The notes beneath the pieces were generated by a model, which saw only the letters and a list, made by a program, of their open reading frames with translations, had not been told where the DNA came from and did no database searches. The position numbers and the translations under genes were made by a program. Shown here piece after piece: positions 2,856 through 26,663 of a stretch of 40,479 nucleotides of DNA. Positions within the stretch are counted from its first letter, which is position 1. Each line of letters opens with the position of its first letter. This stretch comes from a virus, in the IMG/VR virus record IMGVR_UViG_3300036768_001087, positions 1 through 40,479 of that record; one strand, given 5' to 3'.

Positions 2856-3835
2856 TGGTCGTCCCAGACCTTAGAGAAGTCAATGACACCACGGGCATAG
2901 TCAGTCACCCGCGAAGCAAAGAAGTCTGCATGGCTGGTCCCCGCGCTGAGCACATCAAACCACTCCATCCTCGACAGGGCCTCCTTCGAGATGTTCCGCC
3001 AATTCTTCTTCAGCCCAAGGTCTCCGAGCTTGGTATTGCAGCGGTGTCTGATGAAGGCCTTCATGTCCTCAGCTGTCAACCCCTCGACGGGTCCTGCCGA
3101 GAAGGCATTGTCGATGAAGGCATCTTCGAGCTCAACGGTTAACCGGGCGGCCTCATAGATCTCACCCTTGAGGTCGTCATCCCAGATATCTGGGTTCTCC
3201 TCGATGAGTGTCTTAAAGAGCCAACACCCAGCATCGGAGTGGAGACTCTCATCCTTCACTGAGAAGGCGATGATTTGACCGAGACCCTTCATCTTGTTGA
3301 AACGACTAAAGTTCAGCAGGATCGCGAAGGATGAGAAGAGATTGACGCCTTCGTTGAAGGCACTAAAGATAGCCAGGCTCTTGGCGATCGTCTCTGGCTT
3401 ACCGCCGCGGGTCTCAATCAGGCGATCGATTTTTGCCTTTGCGGTCGGCTCGTGGAGAAATGCCTCAAAGTCGTCGAGCCCAAGGCTTTGATTGAGGTAT
3501 GCGTATGCCACACTGTGGATCGATTCAAAGGCCCCAAACGTGGCAGCCATCATCTGGATCTCAGGCTTTTTGAACCACTTAGTGACTTGGTTCGTCCAGT
3601 ACTCCTGAATGAAGACCTCAGATTGAGTGAACCCCTTCAGAATCTTACCGACCAGTGACCTCTCAGCGTCGTTGAGGATGAGCTTCCAATCGTTGATGTC
3701 TGAGGCCATGGAGACCTCGGTGTGTAACCAGTGACTCTGCTGCTGTTTCTCCCAGTATTCGAAAGCCTTCGGATATTCGAAGGGACTGTAGACGACACGC
3801 GGCTTAAGGAGATCCGGTCGATTTGCCTTACTCAC
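2852..3835 (-). CDS. nrdB: Class I ribonucleotide reductase, small (beta) subunit
   Basis: A 327-residue ferritin-like radical-generating subunit. Metal ligands are visible as Glu73 (TQSEVF), Glu104 and His107 (FESIHS), Glu162 (NEGVNLF), and Glu196 and His199 (KDESLHS). Tyr111, four residues after His107, corresponds to the radical Tyr122 of E. coli NrdB, so a tyrosyl-radical mechanism is likely. By my alignment the first ligand is Glu where E. coli has Asp84. The start is GTG (3835-3833), overlapping the helicase stop as GTGA. The order helicase-nrdB-nrdA with 4-bp overlaps indicates one operon coupling dNTP supply to replication. Confidence 0.95.
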   Translation of the reverse strand: MSKANRPDLLKPRVVYSPFEYPKAFEYWEKQQQSHWLHTEVSMASDINDWKLILNDAERSLVGKILKGFTQSEVFIQEYWTNQVTKWFKKPEIQMMAATFGAFESIHSVAYAYLNQSLGLDDFEAFLHEPTAKAKIDRLIETRGGKPETIAKSLAIFSAFNEGVNLFSSFAILLNFSRFNKMKGLGQIIAFSVKDESLHSDAGCWLFKTLIEENPDIWDDDLKGEIYEAARLTVELEDAFIDNAFSAGPVEGLTAEDMKAFIRHRCNTKLGDLGLKKNWRNISKEALSRMEWFDVLSAGTSHADFFASRVTDYARGVIDFSKVWDDQ

Positions 3836-20298: not shown

Positions 20299-23200
20299 TT
20301 AGTCCCTCCCGCGGATCGCGCTCTTGACGATCGCCCGGGCGAGTCTCTGTCCGTCAACGTTGAGCTCGACCACCGTATTGATCGTCCCACCGGTCGCCGC
20401 GACAGCGGCCCCGACCAGATTCTCGCCGGATCGACCAAGCGGGATGACCGCCTCTGGACCAGCCTCACCGATGATCGCCCTTGTGGGACGGGTGACGACA
20501 CCGCCCTTGGCCATGAATGTCGGCTTATGTGACAACATCTCAAAGCCACTTTCACCGTACAGATTGATAAGCTCATCCTTCTTTTTGGTTAGATACAGCT
20601 CGAACGCCTTGGCGGTGTCTTTGATCCCTTCATCCTTCTGGAAGGTCATGAACTGATCAGAGCTCATCACAAGGGCGCGGATCTTCAACGCATGTTCTTC
20701 GATGAGATAGTCCTTCTCAAGCTTGACTAGATCATTCTTTGCCTTGATCTGTTCAAGCTCAGCCTTCCTGATCTTCATGGAGGTATCCAGCTGCTCCTTC
20801 TCCTTAGCAGAGAGCTTCTCGCGCTCCTTCCTGAAAAGCTCAGAGTAATTCTTCTCCATGTCGATCATGGCGTCGATCTTGTTGACGAACGCGGGAGACG
20901 AACCTCTAATCATCTGCATCGCAGCATCCTGCGCGCTACCTGGTCTACCAAGCTGAGCATAAATCCGCATCTCATCACTGAATGAATCAAACTGTCCAAG
21001 CCCGCCACTTTGGCGCGCTCGGCCGGCGGCGACCTCGGCAGCAGCTTGCTCGACGGAAGCCTGCAACATCTGCTTCTTAATGCCAAGATTAGAGACCTCA
21101 AGCTGCGCCAGTTGCTGCTGGAGTATCTTCTCAGTGGCAATGCGAAGATCACTCAAGGACTTCTCATACGTCTGAGAGCTCGTGACGAGAGCTTGCAGCT
21201 TGTCGGCCGACAGATGCGATCCCTCTTTGAGGTTGTTCAACTCGTCCTTGCTGACCTTCGTCTTATCAGCAAAGAGGGAGAGATCACCTGCTCGCTTTAC
21301 CAGCGCTTCCGCCTCCTCCTTCGAGAGGACGATCTCCTTCTCCTTGGAATTGCGAGCCCGCTCCTCAAGCTTCAAGAGCATATTGTTGCTCGCACGCCGG
21401 ACGATATCATCGGCCTTCCTCCGCGCAATGAACGCCTTCTCCATCTGCGCATTTGTCTCACGGAGCTCCATCTCCTCCTTCATCGACTTGGCAAGGCGCT
21501 CTTTGGCGAGGGACAACTCGTCCTTGCCTTCAGTGGCGAAGAGCTTCTCGATTCCTTTGCCGATGAATCCTCCGACGATCGGCCCGAGCACCATCCCAAT
21601 CGGCCCCAAGAAGCTTCCTGCGATCCCACCGATCGATCCCAAGGCATTTCCGGCGATCCCGCCGATCGCCGAACCGATGCCCGCGCCGGTACCACCAAGC
21701 GCATATCCGGCTGCACCTGCAAGACCCGCGGCTCCAACCTTGCTGAACGCTCCCATACCACCGACCATGTTAAAGACCTTTAGGCCGGCCCAGGCGATGG
21801 CGATCTCCTTGATGTGCCCAGAGAGCCTAAACATCAGGTCGACGAACGACTTGAAGAAGGGAGCCAGCTTGATCACAAGGTCACGGACCGTCACGTAGAA
21901 GCTCTTCATGCTCTTGGCGATGTCACCAACCCAGTCGGCGGCCCGACCGCTCATGACGAACTCCTTTAGGGCGGTGCCGGCGCGCTGCAGATCCTTACCC
22001 AGCTCCTCCATGAACGAGCGCCACCGAGGCCTCTCGGCGAGGGACTCGAAGAAGTGCACGACGGTCGACGTGATCTCCTTCATCACATCCCCAAACGAGG
22101 AGAAATCCTTCCCGCCCTCCTTGGCCAGCCCGAGCACCCTAAGCAGTGGGCTGATGGCCTTGGCGATGGCCCGCGTCACCCGATCGAAGGCGTCTGCGAA
22201 GGAGAACATCGTCTGCGCCGTCTTCTGGAGCATCCTCTGCATCATCTCCTTCGCCTTGAGCTCCCTCTTCTGCTTCGCCTCGGCCTTGGCCACGAAGTCG
22301 GTATACGACTCATTGGCGTTCCGACTGTCGAGAAGGGCGGCGGTCTGCTCCTCGGTGAGCTGTAGAATCGTACTAAAGTGACGACGCTGCTTCGGGGTGA
22401 GACTATCGTAGGTCCACCCTTGGGCCAACATCTGCTGACGGATCATGTCCAGACGGGCCGCGGGATCGTCCTCCATCATCAGGTCCATGGAGTTGATCAT
22501 GGTGCCGAACGCCGCGTTCAACTTCGAGGCCTTCTTGGCCGCGTCGTCGAACATGTCAAAGGACTCGACGGTGGCGCGAAGCTGCTCAAGGGAGATGTCA
22601 TACTTCCTGGCCCACGCGGCTCCCTGGACGAGGGTCTTCTGCCCCTCCTTTCCGAAGCGGGCCATGTAGGTGGCGCTCTTCGCGAGGTCATCGGCGAGCA
22701 TGTTGACCGGGATATCGGCCTGGTTGGCCGCCTTGATCGAGACCTTCACGGCCTCGGTTGCATCGTCAACCGACATCCCGATGTTCTCGAAGACCTTCAG
22801 GAGGGTACCGGAGCCAGAACTTCCAAGTCCAAATCCACGCGAGAGCACGAGGCCCAGCTTGGAGAACCCCTCGCCGGCCTTCACGGTGCGCCCCATGGCC
22901 ATCGTGAACTCACCGAACATCTGCATTCCTTCCTGGATGTCGCCGCCGGTCAGGCCACGAATCGTAGAGGACCACTTGATGGCCTCCTTCTGCGCACTCT
23001 CGATCCCCTTGGTCATGGCGCCGAGCTTCATGTTGAAGCCGCCGATGGCCTGGGTCCAGCGCTCCTGTAGCTCATAGACCCTCTTGATCGAGTCGACCAG
23101 GAAGTCGAACGATATGCTGAGGACGGCCGTGTTCAGGCTCAAAAGAGTATCGACGAGCTTCTTGAGGCCGGACTCCACGGCGCCGAGTGGGACCTGGATG

Positions 23201-23496
23201 AGCTGCTTCTTAAACTTCTCGGCCGAGGTCCTGGCGCGCTCAAACTCGCGTACCAGCCTTCGGATCTCGCGAGGGTCGGTCGCCGCCTCGATGTCCACCT
23301 TCAGATCATTCATCGTGTTGGCGAGGTCCTTGGTGGCACGCCGGGCGCTGGCGAACTGTCCCACGAACGCGCCAATCCCACGACCGAGGCCGCTCAGGCT
23401 AGACATGCCCTGGTTCAGGCGGCTGGTGATGTCATTGATGCCGCGTCCGTACGCGTAGTCGACGTTCGCGTCAAAGCTTGATTTGTAGCCGGCCAC
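20299..23496 (-). CDS. Tail tape measure protein
   Basis: A 1065-residue protein that sets tail length and is ejected ahead of DNA. It has long helical regions, a central Gly/Ala-rich hydrophobic stretch (about 600-670, GGTGAGIGSAIGGIAG and FLGPIGMVLGPIVGGFIG), and a coiled-coil segment rich in Lys/Glu (about 680-960). The C-terminal KGGVV followed by IIGEAGPEAVIPLG is typical of tape measures. At the usual 1.5 angstrom per residue it predicts a tail of roughly 160 nm. The start is GTG (23496) with GAGGTAGG upstream. It follows the frameshifted chaperone region, the standard gene order. Confidence 0.93.
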   Translation of the reverse strand: MAGYKSSFDANVDYAYGRGINDITSRLNQGMSSLSGLGRGIGAFVGQFASARRATKDLANTMNDLKVDIEAATDPREIRRLVREFERARTSAEKFKKQLIQVPLGAVESGLKKLVDTLLSLNTAVLSISFDFLVDSIKRVYELQERWTQAIGGFNMKLGAMTKGIESAQKEAIKWSSTIRGLTGGDIQEGMQMFGEFTMAMGRTVKAGEGFSKLGLVLSRGFGLGSSGSGTLLKVFENIGMSVDDATEAVKVSIKAANQADIPVNMLADDLAKSATYMARFGKEGQKTLVQGAAWARKYDISLEQLRATVESFDMFDDAAKKASKLNAAFGTMINSMDLMMEDDPAARLDMIRQQMLAQGWTYDSLTPKQRRHFSTILQLTEEQTAALLDSRNANESYTDFVAKAEAKQKRELKAKEMMQRMLQKTAQTMFSFADAFDRVTRAIAKAISPLLRVLGLAKEGGKDFSSFGDVMKEITSTVVHFFESLAERPRWRSFMEELGKDLQRAGTALKEFVMSGRAADWVGDIAKSMKSFYVTVRDLVIKLAPFFKSFVDLMFRLSGHIKEIAIAWAGLKVFNMVGGMGAFSKVGAAGLAGAAGYALGGTGAGIGSAIGGIAGNALGSIGGIAGSFLGPIGMVLGPIVGGFIGKGIEKLFATEGKDELSLAKERLAKSMKEEMELRETNAQMEKAFIARRKADDIVRRASNNMLLKLEERARNSKEKEIVLSKEEAEALVKRAGDLSLFADKTKVSKDELNNLKEGSHLSADKLQALVTSSQTYEKSLSDLRIATEKILQQQLAQLEVSNLGIKKQMLQASVEQAAAEVAAGRARQSGGLGQFDSFSDEMRIYAQLGRPGSAQDAAMQMIRGSSPAFVNKIDAMIDMEKNYSELFRKEREKLSAKEKEQLDTSMKIRKAELEQIKAKNDLVKLEKDYLIEEHALKIRALVMSSDQFMTFQKDEGIKDTAKAFELYLTKKKDELINLYGESGFEMLSHKPTFMAKGGVVTRPTRAIIGEAGPEAVIPLGRSGENLVGAAVAATGGTINTVVELNVDGQRLARAIVKSAIRGRD

Positions 23497-23507
23497 CCTA
23501 CCTCACC

Positions 23508-23738
23508 TCACTTGACCGGAGCGGTCTTCGTTCCGTTGATCGCTCCCTCGTATGCTTCCTTTCGTGCCGCCGCGTCCCTGTTCATCTGATCGATCCACCA
23601 CCGTCTAACCTCGACCGGCATCCTCCGAGCCTCGGCTAGTCCCACCTCCTTAGCGACGTACCGTAGCTCAAGGAGGAGGTTCACGTTCCTCTCAGAGATG
23701 ATCTTGTTGAACTCCGGATCGTCAATCCTCGGAAGGCC
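23508..23738 (-). CDS. Frameshift-accessed C-terminal extension of the tail chaperone
   Basis: A 76-residue reading frame starting GLPRIDDPEF just after the T7 run and ending 12 bp before the tape measure gene. It is rich in helix formers (NVNLLLELRYVAKEVGLAEA, MPVEVRRWWIDQ) and looks protein-coding, but it has no good start of its own. The upstream part of the frame (to 23858) reads as Arg/Ser-rich shadow sequence. It is best read as joined to the gp26-like gene by a +1 (or -2) ribosomal shift, giving a fusion of about 349 residues. This mirrors the G/G-T tail chaperone arrangement upstream of tape measure genes. A sequencing error in the homopolymer is the alternative. Confidence 0.65.
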   Translation of the reverse strand, partial: GLPRIDDPEFNKIISERNVNLLLELRYVAKEVGLAEARRMPVEVRRWWIDQMNRDAAARKEAYEGAINGTKTAPVK

Positions 23739-24558
23739 AAAAAAACGAGGGTCCGATCGGGATCTCGACCTCGTTCGTCTTTCCGCAGGAAGGGCACTCG
23801 AAGTCCTGCTCCATGTCGACGCCCGGGGCGATCTTGTCCATGTACGCCCTCCAGGCACGAGAGTCCTGGGCCGGAAGGTTCTCGATCGCCCTCGGTAGCT
23901 CAGATCGATCCTTCAGGCCGGCCATTGAGGTCGCCTGGGCCAGCAGCCTCATCGTGACGCCCTGTTCACGACCGGTCTTCTTCCGCAGCGCCTCCATGTC
24001 ACGGTCGAGCTTGTTCACCGTGTAGGCGTCCATGAGCTTGAACCTGACCTCACGGCCGTTACTCGGAAGCTTGAACGAGAACTCATTTGTGCCAGGGCCC
24101 CCGACCGGCTCGACGTCAAGAGTCTTCAGGGTAAGCTTCGAGAGGTCAAAGTCGTAGTCGCTCTCCTCACCGCAGTCTGGGCAGGTCACCCGGGCGTTGT
24201 AGATCGGACCGTAGGCCGACACCCTGATCGAGACGAGGACGGCGTTCCTGTCGCCGACCAACATCGTGTCAGGATCGACAGTCCGGTTCGTGATGCACGC
24301 CTTCATGAGCTCCGTCAGGACGATGCCCTTCTTGATGAGAGCGGGTGAGGCGAGGATGTTCTCCTCCTTCGCCGTCACGGCCTTGATGTCCACCGTCTCA
24401 CAGAGATAGAGCGGCGACTCGGGCGGATAGACGATGCCCCTCGACGGAAGCTTGACGGAGCTAACCGGCGGGGCGTACTCATCGTCTGCCGGATGGGGGA
24501 CGGAAGCCTGATTCCTTGGGTCCGTCGCCTTCCACATGTCTTTGACAGTCTGGTTCAT
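23722..24558 (-). CDS. T4 gp26-like baseplate hub / tail assembly chaperone
   Basis: A 278-residue protein of the T4 baseplate (gp26-like) family: LPSRGIVYPP (37-46), a TAKEENILASPALIKKG segment (62-78), then VGDRNAVLVSIRVSAYG (101-117). Two CxxC pairs (Cys126/Cys129 in CPDCG and Cys255/Cys258 in CPSCG) probably bind zinc. Proteins of this type assist hub and tape-measure assembly. The frame ends SFFWPSED-stop, seven codons after a run of seven T, and a second frame continues downstream. The ATG at 24558 has a GAAAGAG site, preceded by a small hairpin. The gene opens the tail operon after a terminator. Confidence 0.8.
   Translation of the reverse strand: MNQTVKDMWKATDPRNQASVPHPADDEYAPPVSSVKLPSRGIVYPPESPLYLCETVDIKAVTAKEENILASPALIKKGIVLTELMKACITNRTVDPDTMLVGDRNAVLVSIRVSAYGPIYNARVTCPDCGEESDYDFDLSKLTLKTLDVEPVGGPGTNEFSFKLPSNGREVRFKLMDAYTVNKLDRDMEALRKKTGREQGVTMRLLAQATSMAGLKDRSELPRAIENLPAQDSRAWRAYMDKIAPGVDMEQDFECPSCGKTNEVEIPIGPSFFWPSED
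23739..23745 (-). promoter_or_regulatory. Candidate T7 slippery site for programmed frameshifting
   Basis: In the coding direction the zero frame reads TCG TTT TTT TGG CCT. Skipping one T (+1), or slipping back two, moves ribosomes into the frame of the 76-residue extension (FF-GLPRIDD). Homopolymer T runs are permissive for slippage. The zero-frame stop follows 15 nt after the run. Its location, one gene before the tape measure, is where tailed phages place this recoding event. Confidence 0.65.
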
Positions 24559-24682: not shown

Positions 24683-24714
24683 AAAAAGAAAAAGGGAGGG
24701 GGTGATCCCCTCCC
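24683..24714 (-). terminator. Rho-independent terminator after the holin-like gene
   Basis: The stem GGGAGGGG / CCCCTCCC (8 bp, 5-nt loop) is followed in the minus-strand transcript by TTTTTCTTTTT. It starts about 25 bp after the stop of the holin-like gene. This is the clearest intrinsic terminator in the window, and it separates the tube/lysis block from the tail operon downstream. Confidence 0.88.
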
Positions 24715-24740
24715 CTCATCCTCTATCTCTTTGCCTGGGT

Positions 24741-26116: not shown

Positions 26117-26146
26117 GGGGTTCGAGCGATGCGCTGCTCGAACCCC
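26117..26146 (-). terminator. Terminator-like hairpin after the tail tube gene
   Basis: A perfect 11-bp stem, GGGGTTCGAGC / GCTCGAACCCC, with an 8-nt loop is followed in the transcript by TTTCCTCTG. It lies 29 bp after the tube protein stop. The plus-strand run of ten C beside it extends the GC block. It probably ends or attenuates the tube transcript before the lipoprotein gene. Confidence 0.7.
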
Positions 26147-26174
26147 CCCCCCAAGCGAGAAGTCCTCTGACGTC

Positions 26175-26663
26175 TCAGAATAGGTGTATGGCCGAGTCGT
26201 ACCTGACCACCAACGAGACCTCGGCGTTATCCGAGGAGGCGTAGTCGAGCTCGCCCATGTTGGTATCCTGGACCCAGGCGCCCTTGATAGCCCACTGTTC
26301 GATGACGGCGCCCTGCGGATCCAACATCTTCAGCGAGAAGTCCCTCTTGTACATCGTGGCGTATCCGCTACGGCCGGTGATCACCTCGTAGCAGAGCCGG
26401 ACCCACTGCATGACCTTCTGGGCAGCCGAAGGAGCGATCGGGTCCTGGAGGGTGATGTTCAGCGGCGAGTAGGCCATCTTACCGGCCACATACCGCTTGG
26501 TGTTGATGTAATCGATGACGGTCTCCTCGAACGTCATCTGCGGACGGGCCCCCGTCTTTAAGGTAAACGCGTCGATGCCGTCGATCTCCATGGTCCAGCG
26601 GAACTTCCGCTTGGGCTCATAGGTGTTCGCCAGCATCTGGTTGGTCTCGAGGATCTCGGCCAT
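26175..26663 (-). CDS. Tail tube protein, T4 gp19-like
   Basis: A 162-residue protein that should polymerise into the inner tail tube. It matches the gp19 pattern: an N-terminal MLANTYEPKRKFRWTMEIDG segment, ARPQMTFEETVIDYINTKRY, the SPLNITLQDPIAPSAAQK segment, then LKMLDPQGAVIEQW and a final VSLVVRYD strand. The length is that of T4 gp19 (163). The ATG at 26663 has AGGAG 10 nt upstream. It is separated from the sheath gene by fibre and acidic-protein genes, unlike T4, where genes 18 and 19 are adjacent. The 99-bp gap before it holds only weak inverted repeats. Confidence 0.92.
   Translation of the reverse strand: MAEILETNQMLANTYEPKRKFRWTMEIDGIDAFTLKTGARPQMTFEETVIDYINTKRYVAGKMAYSPLNITLQDPIAPSAAQKVMQWVRLCYEVITGRSGYATMYKRDFSLKMLDPQGAVIEQWAIKGAWVQDTNMGELDYASSDNAEVSLVVRYDSAIHLF

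What the first reader, a model, noticed from the sequence alone, without database searches (positions are those of the whole stretch)
23508..24558. Programmed +1 (or -2) frameshift at a T7 run linking a gp26-like chaperone to a C-terminal extension
The gp26-like frame ends 15 nt after TTTTTTT, while a coding-quality frame of 76 residues continues from exactly that point to 12 bp before the tape measure gene and has no start of its own. Tailed phages commonly recode at this locus, mostly by -1. The -2 shift of Mu and the +1 shift of some Listeria phages are the exceptions. Here the shift needed is +1 or -2 on a pure T run, and the upstream partner is a gp26-type zinc-ribbon protein and not a classic G protein.
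Basis: partly seen in the sequence, partly recalled or inferred. Interest (0 to 1): 0.72.

Follow-up and report, generated by a model that had tools for sequence, protein, structure and literature searches.

The report
+1 frameshift in phage tail chaperone
A tail-assembly helper gene of an uncultured contractile-tailed virus very probably makes a second, longer protein when ribosomes slip forward one base at a run of seven Ts, and the same two-frame layout occurs in more than 150 related viral loci, so it is real recoding of a known kind (in the less usual direction) and not a sequencing error.

Summary
On the minus strand a T4 gp26-like gene (24558-23722) reaches CCC TCG TTT TTT TGG CCT and stops 14 nt past the T7 run, while the +1 frame stays open for 76 codons to 11 bp before the tape measure gene. 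It is not a sequencing error: of 153 dereplicated homologues, 151 have the same break at the same Phe-Phe position with an open +1 extension. The junction reads TTT TTT TGG in 119, TTC TTT TGG in 11, TTT CTT TGG in 10 and TTT TTT TAC in 6. The extension evolves as protein (third-position excess in 50 independent pairs) and is predicted as a three-helix domain. Homologues with a broken T run favour +1 ribosomal slippage over -2 slippage or polymerase slippage. The products are best read as short (TAC-N) and long (TAC-NC) tail assembly chaperones. T4-type chaperones and their frameshifts are already published. Cyanophage Syn9 and three jumbo phages read here use -1 at T TTT TTC in the same place. 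What appears new is a very widespread +1 branch with a TTTTTTTGGC signal. Expression, slippage efficiency and function were not tested.

The parts
23722..24558 (-). Frame-0 ORF, 278 aa: gp26-like tail assembly chaperone, short form (TAC-N), with two CxxC zinc-ribbon knuckles
   Evidence: PF12322 E 1e-17 and phrog_150 E 1.7e-20; homologues
23739..23745 (-). T7 slip site. Codons TTT (23745-23743) and TTT (23742-23740, proposed P site), then T of TGG (A site 23739-23737)
   Evidence: conserved among 153 dereplicated homologues; second codon TTT 140 against TTC 2, p 3e-16
23508..23738 (-). +1-frame extension, 76 aa plus stop (TAC-C domain); the fused product reads ...IGPSFFGLPRIDD...
   Evidence: open frame; nearly invariant G1, L2, P41, R45; third-position excess; AlphaFold2 pLDDT 86.9, three helices
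23722..23724 (-). Frame-0 stop TGA, shortly after the TTT TTT TGG junction; a spacing of 3-6 codons in 152 of 153 homologues
20299..23496 (-). Tape measure protein gene, 1065 aa (GTG start), directly downstream
   Evidence: length and position; phrog_1047 4.5e-5 and weak local matches to tape measure families
26175..26663 (-). Tail tube gene upstream (tube - chaperone - tape measure order)
   Evidence: phrog_4542 tail tube protein 7.7e-35
24691..24717 (-). Terminator-like hairpin (11 pairs) followed by TTCTTTTTCA, upstream of the chaperone gene
   Evidence: consensus match only, and shuffled sequence gives 2 such sites on average

Best explanation
This is a T4-type (gp26-like) tail assembly chaperone gene expressed in two forms. 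Most ribosomes stop after FFWPSED and make the short chaperone. A minority slip +1 at TTT TTT TGG: the tRNA-Phe in the P site re-pairs from the second TTT onto the overlapping TTT one base downstream while the Trp codon UGG waits in the A site, and translation continues as ...FFGLPRIDD..., adding a 76-residue helical domain. By analogy with lambda gpG and gpGT, the short form would coat the tape measure protein and the long form would recruit tail tube subunits. Shown here: the two-frame arrangement, its deep conservation, purifying selection on the extension, and conservation of the slip codons. Inferred: that slippage happens, that it is +1 on the ribosome, its efficiency, and the chaperone roles.
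For: 151 of 153 dereplicated homologues (24-67% identity) have an open +1 frame right at the slip (median 74 codons), and the frame-0 stop follows within 3-6 codons in 152 of 153. The nearest relative found, L097 (67%), has TTT TTT TGG CCT and a homologous extension (33 of 76 aligned residues identical). Extension differences at codon positions 1/2/3 over 50 independent pairs: 1112/715/1952. The second Phe codon is TTT in 140 and TTC in 2, against 998:351 elsewhere in these genes (p 3e-16). FFGL is invariant across 23 fused products (these were chosen for having T7). The extension is predicted with pLDDT 86.9. TTC TTT T and TTT CTT T junctions arose several times (at least 4 and 3 label changes on the starred branches of a FastTree) and still keep the +1 frame. 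Gene order is tube - chaperone - tape measure. Four T4-type relatives, cyanophage Syn9 and three jumbo phages, show the same split in the -1 frame at T TTT TTC, so recoding at this spot is a property of the family.
Against: No protein or reporter data. No stimulator was found: no conserved upstream Shine-Dalgarno-like element (45 of 153 have any weak match), and the downstream 86 nt fold no better than shuffles (z +1.05). The window and most relatives have T7 itself, which allows -2 or transcriptional slippage. Two homologues (L052, L163) open in -1 instead. Foldseek matches of the extension to annotated tape measure and tail assembly chaperones are weak (E above 0.4). Relatives were found with gp26-like queries from this branch, so the frequencies describe this branch of the family only.
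Confidence: 0.9

Rival explanations
1. -2 ribosomal frameshift (Mu-like): tRNA-Phe moves back two bases within T7, giving FFFGLP.
For: T7 allows perfect re-pairing two bases back in the window and in most relatives.
Against: In 11 dereplicated relatives the site is TTC TTT TGG, where -2 would place tRNA-Phe on TCT; these arose several times. Streptococcus GXN1 has TTC TTT C, where +1 re-pairs well and -2 does not.
Confidence: 0.06
2. Transcriptional slippage: the RNA polymerase adds or drops bases at T7 and ordinary translation reads the altered mRNAs.
For: A homopolymer of seven is present in most homologues.
Against: 25 of 153 homologues have no T run longer than 4 at the site, and all but one of these (L163) keep the same +1 extension; seven is short for efficient bacterial slippage (general knowledge).
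Confidence: 0.03
3. Sequencing or assembly error: the gene is one continuous frame and one T is miscounted.
For: Homopolymers are error prone; raw reads are not available here.
Against: The same break occurs in 151 of 153 homologues, including named complete genomes, and also where no homopolymer exists.
Confidence: 0.01
4. The extension is a separate small gene with its own start (coupled re-initiation).
For: GTG codons exist in the +1 frame of the window, and public annotations call truncated ORFs here.
Against: Homology begins at the slip (GL directly after FF), the +1 frame is open upstream for a median of only 9 codons, and 125 of 153 have no ATG upstream; no conserved start.
Confidence: 0.02

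Closest known systems
T4-type tail assembly chaperones with frameshift (TAC-N/TAC-NC; Vladimirov, Gautam and Davidson, Virology 2022, 566:9-15)
   Different: A citing paper describes the poly-T signal as -1 (PMC12846349), and Syn9 and three jumbo phages read here use -1 at T TTT TTC; this branch uses +1 at TTT TTT TGG. The 2022 paper itself was not held, so whether it mentions +1 cases is unknown.
Phage T4 gp26 and gp51
   Same: PF12322 covers both gp26 (215 bits) and gp51 (178 bits), and gp51 carries an extra C-terminal part
   Different: T4 encodes short and long forms as two separate genes without a frameshift
Phage lambda gpG/gpGT
   Same: Two-frame chaperone gene just before the tape measure gene
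   Different: -1 shift; sequence relation not tested
Haloarchaeal myovirus HSTV-2 chaperone locus
   Same: Predicted +1 shift at the same locus in a myovirus (PMC5009743)
   Different: Archaeal virus; sequence relation not tested
E. coli prfB (RF2) +1 frameshift, CUU UGA C
   Same: P-site slip on a YUU U; the TTT CTT TGG C variants resemble it closely
   Different: A-site is a Trp codon and not a stop; no upstream Shine-Dalgarno element found

Membership tests
Frameshifted tail assembly chaperone (lambda G/GT, T4-type TAC-N/TAC-NC) | Gene lies between the tail tube and tape measure genes, directly before the tape measure | tested here: met
   tube at 26663-26175, tape measure from 23496
Frameshifted tail assembly chaperone (lambda G/GT, T4-type TAC-N/TAC-NC) | Upstream protein belongs to the T4 gp26 family (T4-type only) | tested here: met
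   PF12322 1e-17, phrog_150 1.7e-20
Frameshifted tail assembly chaperone (lambda G/GT, T4-type TAC-N/TAC-NC) | Second coding frame overlapping the 3' end, without its own conserved start, at a slippery sequence | tested here: met
Frameshifted tail assembly chaperone (lambda G/GT, T4-type TAC-N/TAC-NC) | Both short and long products are made at a fixed ratio and are needed for tails | not testable with these tools
   needs expression or mass spectrometry
Canonical -1 frameshift (X XXY YYZ) | Extension lies in the -1 frame | tested here: not met
   only 2 of 153 open in -1 rather than +1; in the window the -1 frame closes soon after the slip
prfB-type +1 frameshift | In-frame stop in the A site and an upstream Shine-Dalgarno-like stimulator | tested here: not met
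   A site is TGG in 141 of 153 and TAC in 6; no conserved upstream element

The most novel reading that the evidence does not exclude
TTTTTTTGGC (with its TTCTTTTGGC and TTTCTTTGGC variants) is an autonomous +1 ribosomal frameshift signal that needs no RNA structure or Shine-Dalgarno stimulator and is used by a large, mostly uncultured branch of T4-type myoviruses. Their relatives use -1 at the same codons, so the direction of recoding flipped within one gene family while the two-product outcome was kept.
Probability: 0.55. Interest if true: 0.6.

Novelty: new variant of a known kind. Interest (0 to 1): 0.45.

Why it matters
No general motif for +1 frameshifting is recognised (PRFect paper). 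A site conserved across over 150 loci, apparently without stimulators, would give a clean +1 model and a search motif. It would also correct annotation: these extensions are now split off as truncated hypothetical ORFs or missed. And one gene family that uses -1 shifts, +1 shifts and gene duplication (T4 gp26/gp51) to make the same pair of proteins is a good case of solution swapping.

Tried and rejected
A PDB sequence search with the fused protein gave no relative. Foldseek of the extension gave only weak matches, though some are named tape measure or tail assembly chaperones. Profile comparison with T4 gp51 was weak (probability 8%), and with T4 gp26 moderate (48%). Stimulatory RNA structure was looked for in the window and not found. 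tblastn with the tape measure protein found only short local matches. The 2022 Virology paper is not in the library, so its content is known only from citing papers and, beyond that, from memory of its abstract. Syn9's gp26 was first sought in the wrong regions and then found by family search.

Full report
What is there. The window is a 40,479-base IMG/VR virus record of a contractile-tailed phage: sheath at 34614-32263, tube at 26663-26175, tape measure at 23496-20299. Between tube and tape measure lies a 278-codon gene on the minus strand, 24558-23722, that matches Pfam PF12322 T4_baseplate (E 1e-17) and phrog_150 baseplate hub (E 1.7e-20), the family of T4 gp26. Near its end it reads GGA CCC TCG TTT TTT TGG CCT TCC GAG GAT TGA. 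From the same T7 run the +1 frame reads GGC CTT CCG AGG ATT GAC and stays open for 76 codons until 23508, 11 bases before the tape measure start.

It is not an artefact. Searches with the protein and with alignments of its relatives brought in about 180 loci from IMG/VR, bacterial and archaeal genome contigs, and named phages. After dereplication 153 remained, the window included. In 151 the +1 frame is the open one directly from the slip site (median 74 codons; three of these reach the contig end early); in two (L052, L163) the -1 frame is open instead. The frame-0 stop lies 3-6 codons beyond the junction in 152 of 153. The search patterns of the two large viral scans lay far upstream of the junction, so the motif was not selected for by the search; in the smaller genome scan one pattern covered the junction in protein. 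Named phages with the +1 layout include Microcystis phage Mel-JY01, Flavobacterium immuto phages, Bacillus SP-15, Listeria LIS04, Streptococcus GXN1, Streptomyces BRock and a 484-kb uncultured phage. Their annotations give the extension as separate or truncated hypothetical ORFs or omit it.

The extension is protein. In 50 independent pairs differences fall at codon positions 1/2/3 as 1112/715/1952. Among 71 extensions G1, L2, P41 and R45 are nearly invariant, and AlphaFold2 gives three helices with mean pLDDT 86.9. The nearest relative found, L097, has the same TTTTTTTGGCCT and a homologous extension, 33 of 76 aligned residues identical.

Direction and mechanism. The junction is TTT TTT TGG in 119, TTC TTT TGG in 11, TTT CTT TGG in 10, TTT TTT TAC in 6, and seven others. 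The second codon is TTT in 140 and TTC in 2, while elsewhere in the same genes the ratio is 998 to 351 (p 3e-16); the first codon is less constrained (139 to 13). That is what a +1 move of the P-site tRNA-Phe from TTT onto the next TTT requires. A -2 move needs T at the bases that TTC TTT T breaks, and those sites arose several times (at least four label changes forced by starred branches of a FastTree). Twenty-five of 153 have no T run over four, which speaks against transcriptional slippage. TGG, and the C that follows, are conserved partly because both frames use them (Trp-Pro in frame 0, Gly-Leu in +1). No upstream Shine-Dalgarno-like element is conserved and no downstream structure is predicted in the window, so the signal may act alone with a slow Trp codon in the A site. 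This last step is inference.

Function. T4-type gp26 is the short tail assembly chaperone and T4 gp51 the long one, according to Vladimirov, Gautam and Davidson 2022 (Virology 566:9-15), which PMC12846349 and PMC10885494 cite; that paper was not held, and the assignment of gp26 and gp51 by name rests on memory of its abstract. Consistent with this, PF12322 hits both T4 proteins and gp51 continues past the domain. In cyanophage Syn9 and in Agrobacterium Atu_ph07, Pseudomonas 30-3 and Serratia BF the gp26 gene ends at T TTT TTC and the extension lies in -1. So the break sits at the same Phe-Phe in all, with the direction depending on lineage. The window belongs to the +1 branch. By analogy with lambda gpG/gpGT the long form would link the tape measure to tube subunits; that is inferred.

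Verdict. The system is a known kind (frameshifted tail assembly chaperone). The +1 direction with a TTTTTTTGGC signal, conserved over a large and mostly uncultured branch, was not found in the papers that could be searched and is rated a new variant, with the caveat that the key 2022 paper could not be read.

Noticed in passing
window 24717-24691 (-): A terminator-like hairpin precedes the chaperone gene; Bacillus phage SP-15 also has an annotated terminator between its tube and gp26-like genes. It may lower chaperone transcription relative to the tube.
   Followed up: partly
L052 and L163 (around locus position 3238): Two homologues keep the Phe-Phe-Trp-Pro end but have the extension in the -1 frame; L163 reads TTC TTC TGG, which is not an obvious slippery site.
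   Followed up: partly
LR756511.1, L010/L198: A 595-kb phage gp26-like gene runs past the usual end, and how its extension is made is unclear from the frames read here.
   Followed up: no
window 16164-15160 (-): Only the last part of this 334-aa ORF matches DNA polymerase A (PF00476, just under the cut-off; phrog_17). The polymerase may be divergent or split across ORFs.
   Followed up: no
window 26143-26152: A C10 run just after the tail tube gene, the longest homopolymer in the window.
   Followed up: no
window 24935-24741 (-): Short ORF of 64 aa with a hydrophobic segment, holin-like by eye; no Pfam match.
   Followed up: partly
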